From a bacterium 1XD21-70 (GTDB lineage Bacteria; Bacillota; Clostridia; Lachnospirales; Lachnospiraceae), in assembly GCA_003669055.1 (NCBI GenBank), contig RAYB01000015.1, forward strand, positions 1 to 64,000: a stretch of 64,000 bases of DNA, given 5' to 3'. A model generated the notes under the pieces. The model was not told where the DNA came from. It worked only from the letters and a program-made list of their open reading frames with translations, and did no database searches. Shown here in pieces: positions 54,317 to 60,704 of this stretch (position 1 is the stretch's first letter; each line of letters opens with the position of its first letter). Made by a program: the position numbers and the translations under genes.

Positions 54317-54871
54317 TCACTGGCTGTTCAAATACTCCATAACCCCCATGTGGATCGTCCATGCCATCCGGTTCTGATATTCCTCTGTATTTAATGCGGT
54401 CGCCTCCTTCCAGTTGGAAAGGAAACCGCACTCCACAATCACGATCGGCTGCCTGACATGCAGCAGCAGATAATAATTCCCGTTTGGCTTTGCCAGGCGT
54501 TTATTTTTTTCCCCTAACACAAAGTCAAACCGCCGCTGGATAATCTCCGCCAGTTGTTTCCCCTTCTCGGAGTCCTTATAATAGAATACCTGGCCGCCGG
54601 AAACGCCCTCCTCATGATAACTGTTCTGATGGATGCTGACCACCAACTCCGGCCTGGCCTCGTTGATTAGGTTGCAGCGGTTTTTCATGTCTGACATTTT
54701 TTTGTGGCTGTCTTTTTCACCATAGAGCCCTTTATCTGCCTCCCGGGTCATCACTACCTCCACATCCGATGCCTCCAGGTATGCCTTTAGCTTCCTGGCA
54801 ATCTCCAGGTTGACATCCTTTTCCAGGCTCCCGTCCACCCCCACTTTCCCAGGGTCGTTGCCTCCATGTCC
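54317..54871 (-). pseudogene. cwlD: 3' part of cwlD, separated from its 5' part by a 5.7-kb element
   Basis: The last 184 codons of a germination-specific N-acetylmuramoyl-L-alanine amidase (Amidase_3). CwlD helps make muramic-delta-lactam, the cortex mark read by germination lytic enzymes. The piece begins exactly at the zinc-ligand motif GHGGNDPGK, contains DGSLEKDVNLEIARKL and VSIHQNSYH, and ends with the catalytic Glu segment IVIVECGFLSNWKEA. It lacks the membrane anchor and the first strand of the fold. The open frame extends 24 codons into the element, but these residues are not amidase-like. The 5' part is at 60553-60704 in the same frame. After excision a 231-residue protein results, close to the 237 of B. 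subtilis CwlD. Confidence 0.93.
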
Positions 54872-54872
54872 G
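54861..54872. repeat. Left attachment core of the cwlD element
   Basis: CCTCCATGTCCG, identical to the copy at 60553-60564 over exactly 12 bp; the flanking bases differ on both sides. On the coding strand it reads CGGACATGGAGG, the last base of a Ser or Pro codon plus the GHGG codons of cwlD. Confidence 0.9.
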
Positions 54873-54882
54873 GGAAGCGGTG

Positions 54883-54894
54883 ACAGACCAAAAA
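54883..54894. repeat. Left inner inverted arm of the element
   Basis: ACAGACCAAAAA, ten bases inside the left core. It is the exact reverse complement of 60533-60544. The two arms would flank the core in the circular form, as expected for a serine-recombinase attP. Confidence 0.82.
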
Positions 54895-54973
54895 GGATAG
54901 GGATGGAGCAGCCATACCAGGAACACGCCCGGTAAATCCCCATACTCCCTTAAGACGCTGCCATGTAAATCGT

Positions 54974-55346
54974 TCACCGATAAAGCTTCAGTTCATCTGT
55001 AAACAGCTTAGTTGCATCAATCGCGCCTTCAAAATCCTCATGCCTTTTTTGATAACATTCCATATTAATATCACAAAGAATATGTCCTAAAGGCTCATGG
55101 GTAAAACTGCAGCATGAAATGACATCATCTCCAAGCAATGCCGTAAATTCCAGTACATTTAGGAAGAAAGTAAAAGTAAAAATTTTCAAAAAAGGTTCCG
55201 GCAACTCTGACACCCTTAATACAGGCTTTATACCCATCTGTATGATGACCAAAAGCAGAATCATGTTCTAATACCCAGGACACTAATGTGGTTTTATAAG
55301 GTTTGTCGAAATAAATAATCCCATTCTTTTCGCGCATTTCTGGCAT
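54974..55346 (-). pseudogene. Frameshifted hypothetical gene in the element
   Basis: Two overlapping frames together form one protein. The first begins MPEMREKNGIIYFDKPYKT at 55346. After about residue 40 the plausible sequence continues in another frame (from KPVLRVSELPEPFLKIF) to a stop at 54974. The combined product would be about 120 residues with no recognisable domain. Its ATG lies two bases after the stop of the small ORF with a recombinase-like tail, so it was once in that operon. Confidence 0.6.
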
Positions 55347-55348
55347 GG

Positions 55349-55489
55349 CTATCCCACACTCCTTTCTAACCCATCAAACTCCCCGCTGAACTTATAGACA
55401 ATTTCAATATGCTTAACCTTTTTACAAGTGCCTACAAGCATTATATTTGGATTTTTTCTGTAGATAGTATAATAGACTTCGAACTGCAT
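55349..55489 (-). CDS. 46-codon ORF ending in a copy of the recombinase C-terminus
   Basis: The last 15 or so residues before the end (HIEIVYKFSGEFDGL) repeat the C-terminus of the recombinase at 56203-57915 (HIEIIYKFSGEFDGL). The DNA is about 90 percent identical over some 48 bp (55368-55415 against 56221-56269). The first half (MQFEVYYTIYRKNPNIM) is not recombinase-like. It is either a scar of a second recombinase gene or a small chimera. A GGAGG lies well upstream of the ATG, with no other good start between. Confidence 0.5.
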   Translation of the reverse strand: MQFEVYYTIYRKNPNIMLVGTCKKVKHIEIVYKFSGEFDGLERSVG

Positions 55490-55551
55490 GGTTTCGCGGT
55501 AAAAGATAATCTTTCCGAAGAAATTCCTCCTACAATTATGTGATTTTGTAT

Positions 55552-55779
55552 TTATGCTGCTTTGGTAAAATCAATAATGGCTAATTCGGTTAGCATATTT
55601 TTCATTTTAGCAATAATTGTTTCGATCTTTTGCATGGTACGACCATTTAAATATTCTTCTCCGCATTGACTGCATTTTGTACAAGGTACATTTTTAATGA
55701 TGATATAACAACTGTTAACTTCTGTCATATAGGTAGTGGTCGATTTTTTCACATCGCCTTTACATATAAAGCAAACCAT
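55552..55779 (-). CDS. YgiT-type zinc-finger protein (antitoxin-like)
   Basis: A 75-residue protein with two CxxC pairs (CFIC near the start; CTKCSQCGEEYL in the middle), typical of the zinc-binding N-terminal domain of MqsA/YgiT antitoxins but without the DNA-binding half. AAAGGAG precedes the ATG at 55779. It starts three bases after the stop of the DUF4258 gene. Such pairs are common on mobile elements and are regarded as toxin-antitoxin-like. Confidence 0.8.
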   Translation of the reverse strand: MVCFICKGDVKKSTTTYMTEVNSCYIIIKNVPCTKCSQCGEEYLNGRTMQKIETIIAKMKNMLTELAIIDFTKAA

Positions 55780-55781
55780 AA

Positions 55782-56096
55782 TTAAATCTCCTTTCTGGTT
55801 TTGAAATCGGATGTCCATTTATTTCTATCAGGATAATATGCAGTTATAATCCAAAGAGTATTCAAATCTGTTCCTATAACAACATGCAGAATAGTATTTT
55901 TTAATGAGATTCCTAAAACAAGACAACTTGGATAAGGATAATCTGTTGGATATTGTTCTATAATTTCTCCGGTTAAAATGCAGGATATAACATCATTGAT
56001 AGATATATTCCTTTGCTCTAAGCGTTTTGCAGCATGTAAAGTGATTTCAATATTTTCTGGGATACATAATTTTTGTAATTCTAATATTTCCAGCAT
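55782..56096 (-). CDS. DUF4258 protein (toxin-like partner)
   Basis: A 104-residue protein. The early motif ITLHAAKRLEQRNIS is followed by ISCILTGEIIEQYP and the C-terminal beta motif LWIITAYYPDRNKW, the pattern of DUF4258. Members have a small RelE/MqsR-like fold and usually precede a YgiT or other antitoxin gene, as here. AAAGGAG lies just before the ATG. Toxicity is inferred from the pairing, not from a visible active site. Confidence 0.8.
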   Translation of the reverse strand: MLEILELQKLCIPENIEITLHAAKRLEQRNISINDVISCILTGEIIEQYPTDYPYPSCLVLGISLKNTILHVVIGTDLNTLWIITAYYPDRNKWTSDFKTRKEI

Positions 56097-56202
56097 TTTA
56101 CTCCTTTCAATTCCCCAAAGTCATCATAATTGAAACAACCTTCATATAAGTATAACATTCTGCCTGGTATATTGCAAGCCATCTAAAATCTTACCGACAC
56201 GC

Positions 56203-57915
56203 TTAAACAGACTTGATAAACAACCCGTCAAACTCTCCGCTGAACTTATAGATAATTTCAATATGCTTATCTTCATACACATAAATCTTATCAATAAACT
56301 CCACCACCGTAGCACGATCAAGTTCTGTGATTACTCCATTCTCCAAAAGCCTCTCTACCCACGGGTTAGAAAGCACATCGCTGACCTTGGAAACGGACTT
56401 CTTCAGCAGCTTGATTTCATTATTTAAACGGTCAATATCTGCCTGAATTGCTGTCTTATCACTGGCGTACTCCTCTTTACTGATTGTTCCGTCATACAGC
56501 AAATTCCTGGCACTTTGTAAACGTTCTCTGTACTGATGGATTTTCCTGTTTTTGTTCTCAATCTCACGCTGAACCCCAGGGAACTCTGTCTTTGGTGTTC
56601 GTTGATGTTTCTCTGCCAGTTCTCTTAAGTTTTCTACCTGACGGATGATTTTATTCAAATCGTCAATGACAATCTTACGAAGCAGTTTATCTGACACATA
56701 ATGGCTTGTACACTTTGGAGCATTCTCTCCAAGATTCTTCTTATGCTGGCTGTAATCACGGTAAGTCGCGCAGTTATAATATAAGTACTTTGCCGCTTCG
56801 CCGGTTTTAAGCTGTGTATAAGAGTCCCACCTTTTCCGCATAGCATGGCGGCAGTCCCCGCACTTCAAAATCCCCTTAAAAATAGTCACTTCATCCTCTT
56901 TTGTACTATCCCGCTTAATCGTTTTCATCATGGACTGGGCAATCTTCCATCGCTCCCTGGAAATTATCGCTTCATGTGTACCTTCACAACGAATCCACCG
57001 GTCTTTGGCAACTTGTGTCGGCTTGTCATCGGTTAATTTTTTTTGCACCTGCTTATGCTGTACCAGTGTTCCCGTGTAGGTTTCATCCATTAGAATCTTT
57101 TTCACCCCATCACCGCGCCAATGGACTTCTTCATCAGAAATTTTTTTACTGCACCTGAAATTTGACCCATGAAGCCGCTTATAGACCGCTGGATTAACGA
57201 TTCCATCTCTGGTCAGCCCCGCCGCGATTTCCTTTGGAGAAATACCTTGAAGATATTCCTCATAAATCCGCTTTACCACAAGAGCAGCCGTAGTATCAAC
57301 AATAAGATGGTGTTTATTTTCAGGGTCTTTCTGATAACCATAGGGGGCAAATGCCCCCACAAACAGTCCTTTTCGCTGCATAGAATGCATTCCAATACTA
57401 ACATTCCGGTGCTGCTGTTCGGAGTACTCCCGGTTAATCAGCAGGCGGAACCTGTCTGCAATATCCGGTTCCTTATACAAGCTGTCATAATTGTCTCCAA
57501 TGGCAATCAGCCGGACTTCCCTGCCGTTCTGCTCAAATTCCTTTTCCAGATATTTTTGCATCTCCGTATCATACCGACCCAGGCGGGACAGGTTTTTTAC
57601 CACAATGCAGTCAATCCGGTTCTTTTTTATATCACGCATCATCTCCTGGAACCCGCCCCGGTCAAAATTCATCCCTGTGCGGTCATCATCACAGTAAACC
57701 TTATATTCCGCAAGTTCAGCCTCTTCCTCTGTCTGCCCGTTGAGGATCTCGATAAAAGCCCTGCAATAATCGGTCTGGTTTTGGATACTCTGGCTTAAAT
57801 CCGTTTTCTTTTTCTTATCCCTGTCTTCATCGGACAACCTGACATAAATACCCACGCTCCATTTATCGCCATATCTGGAATTATGCAGACAGAATCTGGC
57901 TTTTTTCTTTTCCAT
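56203..57915 (-). CDS. Large serine recombinase of the cwlD element
   Basis: A 570-residue site-specific recombinase. The resolvase-type catalytic domain (about 15-175) carries the nucleophile in GIYVRLSDEDRD and the NLSRLGRYDTEM motif. A Recombinase domain follows (about 190-320; FAPYGYQKD). A zinc ribbon (CGDC ... CATYRDYSQHKK ... KCTSHYV) and a coiled coil (about 420-510) complete it. This is the plan of SpoIVCA, TnpX and phage integrases. GGGAGG before the ATG at 57915 fixes the start; the longer frame reads through the preceding small gene. No stop or frameshift, so it is likely active. It should act on the repeats at 54861 and 60553. Confidence 0.95.
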   Translation of the reverse strand: MEKKKARFCLHNSRYGDKWSVGIYVRLSDEDRDKKKKTDLSQSIQNQTDYCRAFIEILNGQTEEEAELAEYKVYCDDDRTGMNFDRGGFQEMMRDIKKNRIDCIVVKNLSRLGRYDTEMQKYLEKEFEQNGREVRLIAIGDNYDSLYKEPDIADRFRLLINREYSEQQHRNVSIGMHSMQRKGLFVGAFAPYGYQKDPENKHHLIVDTTAALVVKRIYEEYLQGISPKEIAAGLTRDGIVNPAVYKRLHGSNFRCSKKISDEEVHWRGDGVKKILMDETYTGTLVQHKQVQKKLTDDKPTQVAKDRWIRCEGTHEAIISRERWKIAQSMMKTIKRDSTKEDEVTIFKGILKCGDCRHAMRKRWDSYTQLKTGEAAKYLYYNCATYRDYSQHKKNLGENAPKCTSHYVSDKLLRKIVIDDLNKIIRQVENLRELAEKHQRTPKTEFPGVQREIENKNRKIHQYRERLQSARNLLYDGTISKEEYASDKTAIQADIDRLNNEIKLLKKSVSKVSDVLSNPWVERLLENGVITELDRATVVEFIDKIYVYEDKHIEIIYKFSGEFDGLFIKSV

Positions 57916-58114
57916 CGGATTCCTCCCTGGCAGAGCTATGAATCTGAACCAGACGTTCCACTGCTTCCATACAGGAAAACCTTGACTGATAATTGCGGAT
58001 AACCGCCCGCCCCTCTGTCTCCTGCTTTCCAACCTTAACCTGGTTTGCCATATTGACCCACTTGCTGAGTTTTCTAACAGCGTATTCAAGGAATTTCCGG
58101 AATATGAATCTCAT
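57881..58114 (-). pseudogene. Degraded copy of the recombinase-coupled small protein
   Basis: The C-terminal half (IRNYQSRFSCMEAVERLVQIHS) matches the intact copy at 59057-59272 (VRNYQSKFSCTEVIERLIKIHS) and overlaps the recombinase start by 35 bp. The N-terminal half of the family (SYS...NTLLE) is present but in another frame, with a stop before it, so this copy has a frameshift. A shorter product from an internal ATG (MANQVKV) is possible, but no ribosome binding site supports it. Confidence 0.6.
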
Positions 58115-58193
58115 CCTGAGTCAGAATCCAAAAAGCCACTGGCATGTTACTGCCAATGGCTCTAAATGATCCTGTTTTTAGTTTAAAACCATG

Positions 58194-58826
58194 CTACTGA
58201 ACCCAAACCCCATCTGCATTTACCACATATCCGTCTGGTGTGGTGGTATTGGTGAGCATATATCCGTCAGACCCCATATAATACCATAAACCGCTCTCAG
58301 GCGACTGATACCATTGGTTCGTCAGATAGGAACCGTCCGGATTCTCAATCCACCAACCCTTACCATCCTGCTTCCAGGCTGGCGCAGTCCCGGCCTGGCT
58401 GGCTGCGGGAGTGTTGGCGTTGGAAACGCCGGGATTGCCTCCAAGCTTTATAATCAGGGCATCCAGTTCAGCCGCGTCAGCCCCTATACTAACACACCAA
58501 TCACGGCTAATGCCACCAAAAACCACACTATAAGCAACTATTACCTTTGCGTAATCAGCGTTCTGCCAATCTGCACATACTTCTTCTACAGCAAGCAGAA
58601 CCTCCTTTCCAAAATCATCACCTGCCCCCTCTACACTTAAGTGAAATTCTACCATTTCCGCAGCCATATACTTCTCATCTTCGGTTAAATTAGGAAACCG
58701 ATCACGAATCTCCCCCAAAACATATCCCGTTTCACCACTTACCGGAGGAGCTGCACTTACCGTGATCACCGGAACCATCGTCAGGGCTGCTGCTAAAGCA
58801 ATGATTTTTTTGAATATCTTTTTCAT
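58194..58826 (-). CDS. Secreted protein with wall-binding repeats carried by the element
   Basis: A 210-residue exported protein. A signal peptide (MKKIFKKIIALAAAL, likely cleavage near VSAA) is followed by a helical, acidic domain of about 100 residues (RDRFPNLTEDEKYMAAEMVE onward; two Cys flank it), a Ala/Thr/Pro linker, and two aromatic wall-binding repeats (WWIENPDGSYL, LWYYMGSDGYML). The N-terminal domain is unknown to me. As cargo it could alter the cell or spore surface while the element is integrated. Confidence 0.82.
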   Translation of the reverse strand: MKKIFKKIIALAAALTMVPVITVSAAPPVSGETGYVLGEIRDRFPNLTEDEKYMAAEMVEFHLSVEGAGDDFGKEVLLAVEEVCADWQNADYAKVIVAYSVVFGGISRDWCVSIGADAAELDALIIKLGGNPGVSNANTPAASQAGTAPAWKQDGKGWWIENPDGSYLTNQWYQSPESGLWYYMGSDGYMLTNTTTPDGYVVNADGVWVQ

Positions 58827-58994
58827 CTTTCCCTCTTTCCGCAAGATTTTGGCTTATCCTGCATTTCGTATATAACGGCATTTTCTGCCAATTTGGACTA
58901 CAGTATAATTCTAACATATCCTGGCATTGATATCAACTTGAAAATCTATTCCCTGGTCATTTCCGTCTGTAAGGCATCCCTCCCGAGTTTGCCG

Positions 58995-59054
58995 CTTACC
59001 TGATATAAGTAAATAAAAATTATGTATATGAAACCTCTCAGCTTTCGTTTCCAT
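58995..59054 (-). pseudogene. Relic of the start of a second serine recombinase
   Basis: The ATG at 59054 opens METKAERFHIHN, which matches the intact recombinase start MEKKKARFCLHN. It sits directly after the small-protein gene, as in the other copy. Similarity ends after about 12 codons, and the frame then runs about 35 unrelated codons to a stop. The rest of 58845-59056 holds nothing that I can support. Confidence 0.6.
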
Positions 59055-59056
59055 CT

Positions 59057-59272
59057 CTATTCCTCCTTGGTAACACTATGGATTTTAATCAATCGCTCAA
59101 TAACCTCTGTACAAGAAAACTTCGATTGATAGTTACGGACAATTGTCCATGTATTGACCTTTTGCTTTTTAACCTCAATCTGATTTTTCATATCTGACAA
59201 ATCCGCTGCGCTTTCTAACAACGTATTCTCAGAACTGATTGAATATGATACAGACCCTAAAACTGTAGACAT
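59057..59272 (-). CDS. Small protein coupled to a recombinase gene (candidate directionality factor)
   Basis: A 71-residue protein from an ATG with GGAGG eight bases upstream. It has a central basic stretch (KNQIEVKKQKVN) and the conserved block VRNYQSKFSCTEVIERLIKIHS. It is the only intact copy of a small gene family that sits immediately upstream of recombinase genes in this element. Size, charge and coupling fit a recombination directionality factor, but nothing in the sequence proves it. It could also be a regulator of the recombinase. Confidence 0.65.
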   Translation of the reverse strand: MSTVLGSVSYSISSENTLLESAADLSDMKNQIEVKKQKVNTWTIVRNYQSKFSCTEVIERLIKIHSVTKEE

Positions 59273-59477
59273 GCAAAATGCCTCCAACGAAAAAGATATT
59301 TTTCATGCCACATCCAAAGGCTCAGCCTTATTCCATCAGGAAAACCTGGACATCCTTTCATCGCAAAAAAGAGGTACGCTCCCCATAAAAGCCCCAAGTA
59401 GCCGGAACCACCATACTGTTTTTAGGACTCTATTTCCTTTTACCCCTCAAAAAACCGGAATTTCCTATAAACTAAAA

Positions 59478-59949
59478 TCGAGTAGGAGGTAGGCGGTTAT
59501 TTCGCCTGCCGACCTCTCACACCACCGGCGTACCGTTCGGTACACGGCGGTTCAATCAACTTAACAAGCAACACACTTTGTTGTGTAGTAGTCTAACATT
59601 GAGATTAGTCCAAACTTTGCCAGCCGTTCGTTACTTATACATTTGCAGATATTCCAACTCATACAAACTCTGGCATATCCTTTTGCGTAGGATATCCCGT
59701 GTGCTGACCGTCTGTTTAAGCCCAGCTTTACCAACATCTTTTCTCTGTTCTTTGGCGTTTTCCAGTGTTTCCATATGCACATGCGTAGACGGTATCGTAT
59801 CTGCCCGTCAGGCCAGAGGTTTGCCGACTTACAGCTTCTTTCAGATTCCACCTCACGGCGGACACCCTTGCTGTTCAGCTATGTGCTTCGCCGTTGCCTG
59901 CGCGCACTCGGGACTTGCACCCGTTAGAAAACGCCCATGCTGGGCAAAC
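59478..59949 (-). mobile_element. Group II intron remnant with internal deletion
   Basis: Read on the minus strand, the 5' end has the group II intron start region (GTTTGCCCAGCATGGGCG ... GGGTGCAAGTCCCGA). The 3' end has the domain V-VI region (GAACCGCCGTGTACCGAACG ... GGTGGTGTGAGAGG ... CCTCCTACTCGAT). Between them only about 300 bp remain, against the 1.8-2 kb of reverse transcriptase that a full intron encodes. The C-terminal LtrA-like sequence NERLAKFGLISMLDYY is still visible (59561-59851). It is not self-mobile. The 59288-59477 stretch next to it holds no supported gene. Confidence 0.75.
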
Positions 59950-60029
59950 AAAAGGAACAGAAAAACAAAATTTCTGTTCCTTAATCATTTGCTTCCTTCT
60001 TTTCTTTTTTGCTTTTAAAAAAGCTGAAA

Positions 60030-60552
60030 TCACTCAGATACCCACCCGGTTTCCACTCCGTCAAGAATGTATCTTTGGCGGTTTTCGGGAGTGTTATCTA
60101 CACCATTCAGTATTGGGTATGGTTCTGCATAAACTGAAAAATATGCTTCATATGCTGATTCATCCCTATCCTCCGGATTCCAGGAATCAAATTCAAAGTT
60201 CTTTTCCTCCATCACGCTTCCGTCCTTACGACAATAATACAGTTTCCCATCAGATGGCCTTCTGTATTCACCCGATTTTTTCTCACCGCACCAAAAGCTG
60301 TCTTCAGTTCTGTTTTGCAATGATTATATTACTTCAAAACCGGCTTCCATTCATCCGTATATAATTCCTTATCCTGGAAACACAGGCGCAGTATATCACA
60401 TTCTTCTCAGCCTTGTCAATGAATCCCATTTTTCTTCATAATAAAAGACCTGCCTTCCTAAAGACAAGTCTATCATTAAAAACCTTGCAAAACTACCCCT
60501 GGTATCGACAAACTCCCCCAGGTCGGAATCATTTTTTGGTCTGTGAAAAGCC
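60030..60552 (-). pseudogene. Broken hypothetical gene at the right end of the element
   Basis: One frame (60396-60552) continues straight out of the cwlD 5' part as FHRPKNDSDLGEFVDTRG ... GRQVFYYEEKWDSL. A second frame (60030-60320; TTG start without a ribosome binding site) encodes 96 residues with SGEYRRPSDGKLYYCRKDGS and ends GVETGWVSE. Both read like protein sequence, and a short third-frame segment links them, so a frameshifted gene is likely. No family recognised. Confidence 0.45.
60533..60544. repeat. Right inner inverted arm of the element
   Basis: TTTTTGGTCTGT, eight bases inside the right core, is the exact reverse complement of 54883-54894. Confidence 0.82.
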
Positions 60553-60564
60553 CCTCCATGTCCG
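60553..60564. repeat. Right attachment core of the cwlD element
   Basis: CCTCCATGTCCG, identical to 54861-54872. It lies at the end of the 5' part of cwlD. Confidence 0.9.
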
Positions 60565-60704
60565 CTGTCAATCACTACTACCGGTTTTGCTTTTCCTGCC
60601 ACCACATTCTGCCCAGATACCATCATCCCCGCATGCCGGGATACCAGAAAGACAAATAACAGCAAAATGGCTCCCATCCATAGTTCCGGCTTTCGACTGT
60701 TCAT
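60553..60704 (-). pseudogene. cwlD: 5' part of cwlD, separated from its 3' part by the element
   Basis: Encodes the first 47 residues of the amidase plus the GHGG motif. It has a short basic N-terminus, one hydrophobic membrane anchor or signal segment (WMGAILLLFVFLVSRHAG) and the first strand PVVVIDSGHGG of the Amidase_3 fold. GGATGGAG precedes the ATG at 60704. In the integrated state the frame runs into the element and stops at 60396, giving a 102-residue chimera without catalytic domain. It joins in frame with 54317-54871. Confidence 0.93.

What the first reader, a model, noticed from the sequence alone, without database searches (positions are those of the whole stretch)
54317..60704. 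Skin-like excisable element splits the spore-cortex amidase gene cwlD
Seen: the 5' part (60553-60704) and 3' part (54317-54871) of one amidase gene lie on the same strand, in the same frame, and end at identical 12-bp repeats. Joining them gives 231 codons with no scar. Between them lie 5,692 bp with an intact large serine recombinase. Known: sigK is split by skin in B. subtilis and C. difficile, and spsM and spoVFB by other elements. These are removed by serine recombinases in the mother cell, which terminates, so the insertion is not inherited as damage. CwlD is needed for cortex muramic-lactam and hence germination. Inference: this is the same strategy applied to cwlD. I do not recall cwlD as a described host gene, so novelty needs checking. 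The alternative is a plain insertion that leaves a germination-defective strain.
Basis: partly seen in the sequence, partly recalled or inferred. Interest (0 to 1): 0.95.

Follow-up and report, generated by a model that had tools for sequence, protein, structure and literature searches.

The report
Removable DNA insert splitting spore gene
Several related bacteria carry a small piece of DNA, with its own cutting-and-joining enzyme, at exactly the same spot inside a gene used to make spores that can wake up, and it looks built to be removed cleanly when a spore forms, although removal itself has not been seen.

Summary
In detail: a cwlD-type amidase gene is split by 5,692 bp between 12-bp repeats, and the halves join to 231 codons without a scar. 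It is not a one-off. Six of 24 genus genomes have the split at the same codons, 18 an intact gene. All 12 full-length recombinases of this lineage (56-100% identical) with a held flank lie in cwlD, in at least three genera. The element moves between hosts but is locked to this target: recombinase dS is below cwlD dS in 29 of 29 computable pairs, of 66. The predicted circle junction has symmetric arms in 9 of 9 elements. A promoter-like motif, perhaps sigma-E, precedes 12 of 13 recombinases. The six genus genes show no decay, and none of nine carriers examined has a better cwlD. Most likely this is a skin-like sporulation intervening element with a new target. Excision, timing and the directionality factor are unshown. 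sigK is also split in this genome. Ten searches of an open-access library showed no cwlD case.

The parts
60565..60704 (-). 5' part of cwlD outside the repeat: start codon, N-terminal anchor, first strand
   Evidence: 98-100% match to residues 1-51 of the joined protein, repeat included
60553..60564 (-). attL core: left copy of CGGACATGGAGG, over the GHGG codons; crossover assigned by me to the CA dinucleotide
60533..60544 (-). right arm of the predicted attP (ACAGACCAAAAA), inside the element next to attL
59754..59862 (-). group II intron domain match (RF02001), cargo or debris
   Evidence: 35.6 bits, gathering 32
59057..59287 (-). small ORF, intact distal copy (76 aa), 96% identical to the copy directly before the recombinase in G017; candidate directionality factor
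58194..58844 (-). protein with choline-binding repeats (PF19085), variable cargo
58079..58107 (-). sigma-E-like promoter motif TCATATT-N14-AATACGCT, 192 bp before the recombinase start
57881..58114 (-). small ORF, proximal copy overlapping the recombinase start; its 5' end looks frameshifted against the other elements
56203..57915 (-). large serine recombinase, 570 aa (PF00239, PF07508, PF13408), TnpX/TndX-like
55552..56096 (-). DUF4258 gene overlapping a gene with a weak YokU-like antitoxin match; cargo
   Evidence: PF14076 1.1e-26; PF14122 0.0013, below its cut-off
55368..55415 (-). relic of the 3' end of another recombinase copy, 94% identical to 56222-56269
54883..54894 (-). left arm of the predicted attP (TTTTTGGTCTGT), inside the element next to attR
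54861..54872 (-). attR core: right copy of CGGACATGGAGG
54317..54860 (-). 3' part of cwlD outside the repeat (from NDPGK on): most of the catalytic domain, without N-terminal anchor and first strand
   Evidence: PF01520 1.4e-46; TIGR02883 199 bits

Best explanation
A 5.7-kb site-specific element without recognised phage genes sits in the zinc-ligand GHGG codons of cwlD, the cortex amidase gene. Shown: the element's ends, the in-frame rejoining, an intact large serine recombinase, the association of this recombinase lineage with that one site of cwlD, its transfer between genera, and undecayed halves. Inferred: in the mother cell of a sporulating cell sigma-E switches on the small-ORF/recombinase operon, the recombinase with a directionality factor (perhaps the small ORF) recombines attL with attR at the CA dinucleotide, a circle is lost, and cwlD is rebuilt. 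CwlD, which crosses mother-cell-derived membranes by its N-terminal segment, can then modify the cortex. The forespore keeps the element, so the insertion is inherited without harm.
For: Same split at residues 47-52 in 6 of 24 genus genomes, 18 of 24 intact. All 12 full-length recombinases (56-100% identical) with a held flank are followed by the cwlD 3' half; one more (L049) has no flank; 22 more distant recombinases (25-36%) show no cwlD in the flanks held. An attR pattern hits 5 of 24 genus genomes, all carriers, control 0. Symmetric attP arms 14 nt either side of CA in 9 of 9 elements, perfect 7-mers on both sides in 7 of 9; ACAGACC in 0 of 18 and GGTCTGT in 1 of 18 intact sites. TCATATT-N14-AATANGYT before the recombinase in 12 of 13, two invariant blocks round a spacer that varies in letters but not in length; the genus's spoIVA has TGATAAA-N14-CATATGCT in this genome. 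Split-split dN/dS 0.015-0.053 for the 3' half (10 of 15 pairs computable); no excess dN over both halves against four intact sisters. In 9 of 9 carriers examined the split 3' half is the best cwlD match. spoIVA in 23 of 24 and pdaA in 24 of 24 genus genomes. In C. difficile the corresponding His49 binds zinc and CwlD is proposed to cross mother-cell-derived membranes by its N-terminal segment (PMC8496864 passages).
Against: No joined cwlD in the six genus carriers, no circle junction in 24 genus assemblies, no attR/attP left-arm pattern in viral contigs. Because the element moves between hosts, intact halves may only mean recent insertion. In the 5' half alone G021 (dN 0.273) slightly exceeds the highest intact sister (0.262). 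The sigma-E consensus used for scoring was recalled: by it this genome's own spoIVA promoter scores only 9 of 14; motif scores of 11-12 also occur in shuffles (11 in 83 and 12 in 10 of 520) and in controls (one 11 and one 12 among 17, of 23 distant recombinases held); the four sigK-type recombinases score 9-11 and lack the motif; the -10 block begins with A, not C; L084 lacks it. The proximal small ORF looks frameshifted in the window and G018. Three carriers have a 137-148-bit amidase. The sigK halves are far apart in this genome, so its sporulation may be impaired.
Confidence: 0.72

Rival explanations
1. A selfish site-specific element that uses the conserved GHGG codons of cwlD as its attB and simply knocks the gene out. 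Carriers make spores that germinate poorly or not at all, and the insertions are young.
For: Recombinase synonymous divergence is below that of cwlD in 29 of 29 computable pairs (of 66), for example G021-L058 0.18 against 3.8, so insertions can be recent. Carriers are scattered over the spoIVA tree (4 changes; 150 of 500 shuffles as low). Elements carry variable cargo.
Against: Six of the ten species of one clade in the cwlD tree carry it, with no stop in any of the six joined frames and dN over both halves within the range of intact sisters. A motif before the recombinase is conserved. Analogous sigK splits occur in the same genus.
Confidence: 0.18
2. A reversible switch in growing cells: the element leaves and re-enters cwlD at random, so a population always holds some germination-competent cells.
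For: In the C. botulinum yabG element both forms were seen at all time points in culture (PMC10747680 passages). The C. difficile skin recombinase alone suffices for integration (PMC5025042 passages).
Against: No attP in 24 genus assemblies and no intact cwlD beside the split one in six carriers; no replication gene among the eight element ORFs scanned.
Confidence: 0.08
3. Assembly artefact or chimera.
For: In 4 of the 6 genus carriers the halves lie on different contigs.
Against: Both halves lie on one contig in five elements (G000, G018, L051, L054, L058) from separate records, with the same kind of ends; in L051 the 5' half was recognised only by residues 41-51 and the core.
Confidence: 0.01

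Closest known systems
skin of Clostridioides difficile and Bacillus subtilis (in sigK)
   Same: Large serine recombinase and in-frame rebuilding of a mother-cell sporulation gene; in C. difficile a directionality factor (CD1234) under sigma-E/SpoIIID (PMC5025042 abstract and passages)
   Different: Other target gene; the sigK-type recombinase of this genus and the cwlD-type one do not find each other at E 1e-60; 3.1-5.7 kb in the five elements measured (others, such as G021's, are larger); excision not shown
gin in gerE of Bacillus cereus ATCC10987
   Same: Intervening element without phage genes (PMC5595907 abstract and passages)
   Different: 28.6 kb with three recombinases; other gene
yin in yabG of C. 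botulinum; vfbin in spoVFB; vrin in spoVR; SP-beta in spsM
   Same: Other sporulation genes split by excisable elements (PMC10747680 and PMC4191935 passages)
   Different: Prophage or prophage-like; yin was called unique to one strain, while this element recurs across genera
TnpX/TndX serine recombinases (of Tn4451/Tn5397 type; element names recalled)
   Same: TndX about 30% identical over 97%; TnpX N-domain among PDB relatives, beside SP-beta YokA
   Different: Site locked to cwlD; no resistance or mobilisation gene among the eight element ORFs scanned

Membership tests
sporulation intervening (skin-like) element | Interrupts a sporulation gene, with short direct repeats and an in-frame, scarless join | tested here: met
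   (6 of 6 genus elements)
sporulation intervening (skin-like) element | Encodes its own intact site-specific recombinase | tested here: met
   (13 of 13 recombinases examined are open over 568-575 codons; G022's is only partly held)
sporulation intervening (skin-like) element | No intact copy of the gene elsewhere | tested here: met
   for this genome (next 77 bits); weaker in G004, G017, G021 (137-148 bits)
sporulation intervening (skin-like) element | Host gene is used in the mother cell | not testable with these tools
   Literature only: cwlD is listed as sigma-E-controlled in B. subtilis (PMC517825 passage)
sporulation intervening (skin-like) element | Excision controlled by sporulation sigma factors | tested here: inconclusive
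   conserved sigma-E-like motif; scores not decisive
sporulation intervening (skin-like) element | Recombination directionality factor | tested here: inconclusive
   small ORF before the recombinase matched in 12 of 13 elements by script, visible in L058 in the alignment; no function test
sporulation intervening (skin-like) element | Excision and circle observed | not testable with these tools
   no reads held; no attP in 24 assemblies
CwlD (TIGR02883) | Best and full-length match to the CwlD model | tested here: met
   207 bits, profile 2-189 of 189; best PDB match 7rag, germination-specific amidase, 5e-42
CwlD (TIGR02883) | Curated score cut-off (221.55 bits) | tested here: not met
   207 bits; two intact genus genes score 212 and 213, so they fall short too; I therefore say CwlD-type
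large serine recombinase | Resolvase, Recombinase and zinc-ribbon domains | tested here: met
prophage | Phage structural or replication genes | tested here: not met
   Pfam scan of eight element ORFs, none phage-structural; PHROGs not run

The most novel reading that the evidence does not exclude
A small, cargo-variable family of recombinase elements has made cwlD its fixed home across several Lachnospiraceae genera, spreading between them, and puts cortex maturation, and so germination, under a DNA excision licensed in the mother cell. In species such as this one, which also has a split sigK, a mother cell must carry out two independent genome rearrangements to make a spore that can germinate.
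Probability: 0.45. Interest if true: 0.78.

Novelty: new member of a known kind. Interest (0 to 1): 0.64.

Why it matters
If true, cwlD joins sigK, spsM, spoVFB, spoVR, gerE and yabG as a gene rebuilt by developmental excision, and the phenomenon extends to Lachnospiraceae (family from record titles; that these are gut bacteria is my inference from the titles), where spores would be a route of transmission. The smallest element measured (3.1 kb, L051) gives a compact recombinase and att pair to study how excision is tied to cell fate. An annotator reading such a genome would take cwlD for broken and the strain for germination-defective.

Tried and rejected
Second cwlD copy: rejected for this genome. 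Vertical inheritance of one ancient insertion: rejected, because recombinase dS is below cwlD dS in 29 of 29 pairs where recombinase dS could be computed (the other 37 of 66 are saturated) and carriers are scattered in the spoIVA tree, from which G022 is missing because no spoIVA was found there. Note that by protein identity some pairs within the genus go the other way (G000-G021: recombinase 80%, cwlD 3' half 87%). dN/dS as proof of function: withdrawn, since it cannot date the insertions. Circle junction in assemblies: one-mismatch pattern search gave hits in 9 of 24 genomes, none with the core, and no more than the reversed control pattern. Phage origin: one distant relative in viral contigs, 31%; 348 phage records and 195 plasmid records match, all under 60% identity. 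L049 as a circular contig: no end overlap. L071, the one control recombinase scoring 12: its ORFs look to me like clpP, clpX, lon and an engB-type gene (from memory, no family search) and I saw no sporulation gene. Promoter of cwlD itself: a conserved GATATATT block in most species, not interpreted. Structure prediction was not used.

Papers: passages only were seen of PMC5595907, PMC10747680, PMC4191935, PMC5025042, PMC517825 and PMC8496864; all others were seen in listings with the start of the abstract. Literature searches. The library lacks most subscription journals and bioRxiv.
Full report
OBSERVATION. The 12-bp repeat CGGACATGGAGG occurs exactly twice in the window, 5,692 bp apart on the minus strand, and joining the flanks gives a 231-codon open frame. 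The element has 41.8% G+C against 52.4% for the window. The 3' part is an Amidase_3 domain (1.4e-46). The joined protein's best NCBIfam match is CwlD, 207 bits over the profile, slightly under the curated 221.55; two intact genes of the genus score 212 and 213. Its best PDB relative is 7rag, a germination-specific amidase, 5e-42. The cut falls at GHGG; the histidine is residue 49 here, and His49 is a zinc ligand in C. difficile CwlD (passages of PMC8496864). The 5' part holds the N-terminal anchor and the 3' part most of the enzyme, so neither alone should work (inference).

RECURRENCE. Of 24 genomes of the genus, 18 have an intact gene and six (G000, G004, G017, G018, G021, G022) have the same split at residues 47-52. 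A scan of genome contigs with the recombinase gave 34 loci: 12 (L047-L058) at 68-92% identity, of which L057 is a partial copy, and 22 at 25-36%. Ten of the 12 carry a cwlD 3' half downstream. The exceptions are L049, a 3.9-kb contig with no flank, and L057, a second copy at the end of the G021 contig that holds the cwlD 5' half, 92% identical over 1,105 bp to the other G021 copy. A further relative at 56% (G296, L084) is also in cwlD. With the window this makes 12 full-length recombinases with a held flank, all in cwlD, in at least three genera (g1, g112, g274). None of the 22 more distant loci shows cwlD in the flanks held. At E at most 1e-120 the recombinase was found in 3 of 397 family genomes, 1 of 392 order genomes, this one, and 2 of 11 genomes of genus g112; at most three candidates per genome were scored.

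MOBILITY. Recombinase synonymous divergence is below that of cwlD between the same hosts in 29 of 29 pairs where it could be computed (37 of 66 pairs are saturated), for example G021-L058 0.18 against 3.8, and G000-L056 0.57 where cwlD is saturated and only 58% identical in protein. By protein identity some genus pairs go the other way. The element has therefore moved between hosts and landed at the same codons. In the spoIVA tree (23 genomes; G022 had no spoIVA) carriers need four changes, and 150 of 500 label shuffles are as low. Five of 18 intact genes keep the exact CATGGAGG core.

ATTACHMENT SITES. For nine elements with both ends available I derived attB and attP in a script. attP has arms GGTCTGT and ACAGACC 14 nt either side of a CA dinucleotide in 9 of 9 (perfect in 7; one mismatch in G018 and L054). 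Palindrome scores are 13-18 of 30, against mean 7.7 and maximum 13 at 313 control CA sites; G022 only equals that maximum. In several elements the two halves differ just left of CA, which fits a crossover there. Five elements have both halves on one contig and measure 3,092 to 5,692 bp; the others run into contig ends, and G021's is larger.

CONTROL REGION. A small ORF of about 40-45 residues lies directly before or overlapping the recombinase; the script matched it in 12 of 13 loci and it is visible in L058 in the alignment. About 190 bp before the recombinase (234 in G018) lies TCATATT-N14-AATANGYT in 12 of 13. TCATATT is invariant in 12 of 12, the spacer varies in sequence but not in length, and the AATA block is invariant. 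In L051 and G021 the small-ORF frame does not reach it, so coding alone does not explain it. It resembles the sigma-E consensus of B. subtilis (recalled by me; the passages of PMC517825 seen show it only as a logo) and, in spacing and the -10 block, the spoIVA promoter of this genus (TGATAAA-N14-CATATGCT in G000). Scores are not decisive: 11-12 of 14 here; among 520 shuffles 83 reach 11 and 10 reach 12; among 17 control recombinases (of 23 distant ones held) one reaches 11 and one 12; this genome's own spoIVA site scores only 9; the four sigK-type recombinases score 9-11 without this motif; L084 lacks it.

SELECTION. The six split genus genes have no stop in the joined frames. Split-split dN/dS is 0.015-0.053 for the 3' half (10 of 15 pairs; five saturated) and 0-0.196 for the 45 codons of the 5' half (14 of 15 pairs). 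Mean dN to five outgroups over both halves is 0.121-0.147 for split and 0.128-0.187 for four intact sisters; in the 5' half alone G021 (0.273) slightly exceeds the highest intact (0.262). This fits a working gene but cannot exclude recent insertions. In nine carriers examined the split 3' half is the best cwlD match; the next is 77 bits here, and 137-148 bits in G004, G017 and G021.

HOST. spoIVA is found in 23 of 24 genomes, 22 over the cut-off. pdaA, the partner in muramic-lactam synthesis, is matched at E at most 1e-40 in 24 of 24, but over its cut-off in only 8, this genome not among them at 290 of 298 bits. sigK is also split in this genome. A sigK-type recombinase, which the cwlD-type one does not match at E 1e-60, lies 80 kb from the 3' half, and the 5' half is on another contig. 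G004, G017, G021 and G022 have split cwlD with a sigK match in one open frame, so the cwlD split is not simply part of sigK loss.

MECHANISM AND STANDING. I think it most likely (0.72) that sigma-E in the mother cell switches on the recombinase operon, attL and attR recombine at CA, and cwlD is rebuilt there only. Rivals are a selfish knock-out (0.18) and a random switch in growing cells (0.08). Known relatives in kind are skin, SP-beta in spsM, vfbin, vrin, gin and yin (passages). In the library no paper holds cwlD with serine recombinase or with gene rearrangement, sporulation and prophage; the one paper holding cwlD, sporulation, excision, recombinase and intervening mentions cwlD once, as a sigma-E-controlled cortex gene. 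I file it as a new member of a known kind, with the developmental part untested.

Noticed in passing
G000 contigs C79:3225-3509 and C43:123284-123634 (L090, L091); recombinase C43:203551-205230 (L128): sigK is also split in this genome, with the halves on different contigs. About 145 kb of C43 lies upstream of the 3' half and holds what look to me like housekeeping genes and a sigK-type recombinase. att-like ends are kept, so either the segment to be excised is huge or the halves were moved apart.
   Followed up: partly
G020 C20 (L092), G003 C118/C179 (L093, L094), G018 C29 (L095), G011 C8 (L096): Other sigK splits in the genus. G020 has a compact element of about 3.6 kb with a recombinase beside the 3' half; G003 has the recombinase beside the 3' half; in G018 it sits by the 5' half. 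No 3' half was listed for G018 or G011.
   Followed up: partly
window 59754-59862 (-): Group II intron D1-D4 match inside the element, 35.6 bits, with no long ORF beside it; probably debris.
   Followed up: no
window 55552-56096 (-): DUF4258 gene overlapping a gene with a weak YokU-like antitoxin match, perhaps a toxin-antitoxin pair that stabilises the element. G017 keeps the second gene (99%) but only a fragment of the first.
   Followed up: no
window 55368-55415 and 56222-56269; L056 359-559; G021 contigs C16 and C19: Relics or second copies of the recombinase within the same insertions, which suggests repeated insertion at the same att site.
   Followed up: partly
L053 6156-6716, L084 7631-8248: ORFs of 186 and 205 aa before the small ORF that look alike to me by eye; not aligned, function unknown.
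   Followed up: no
intact cwlD genes of the genus: Only 5 of 18 intact genes have the exact core CATGGAGG; the others carry synonymous changes there, which might make them poor targets.
   Followed up: no
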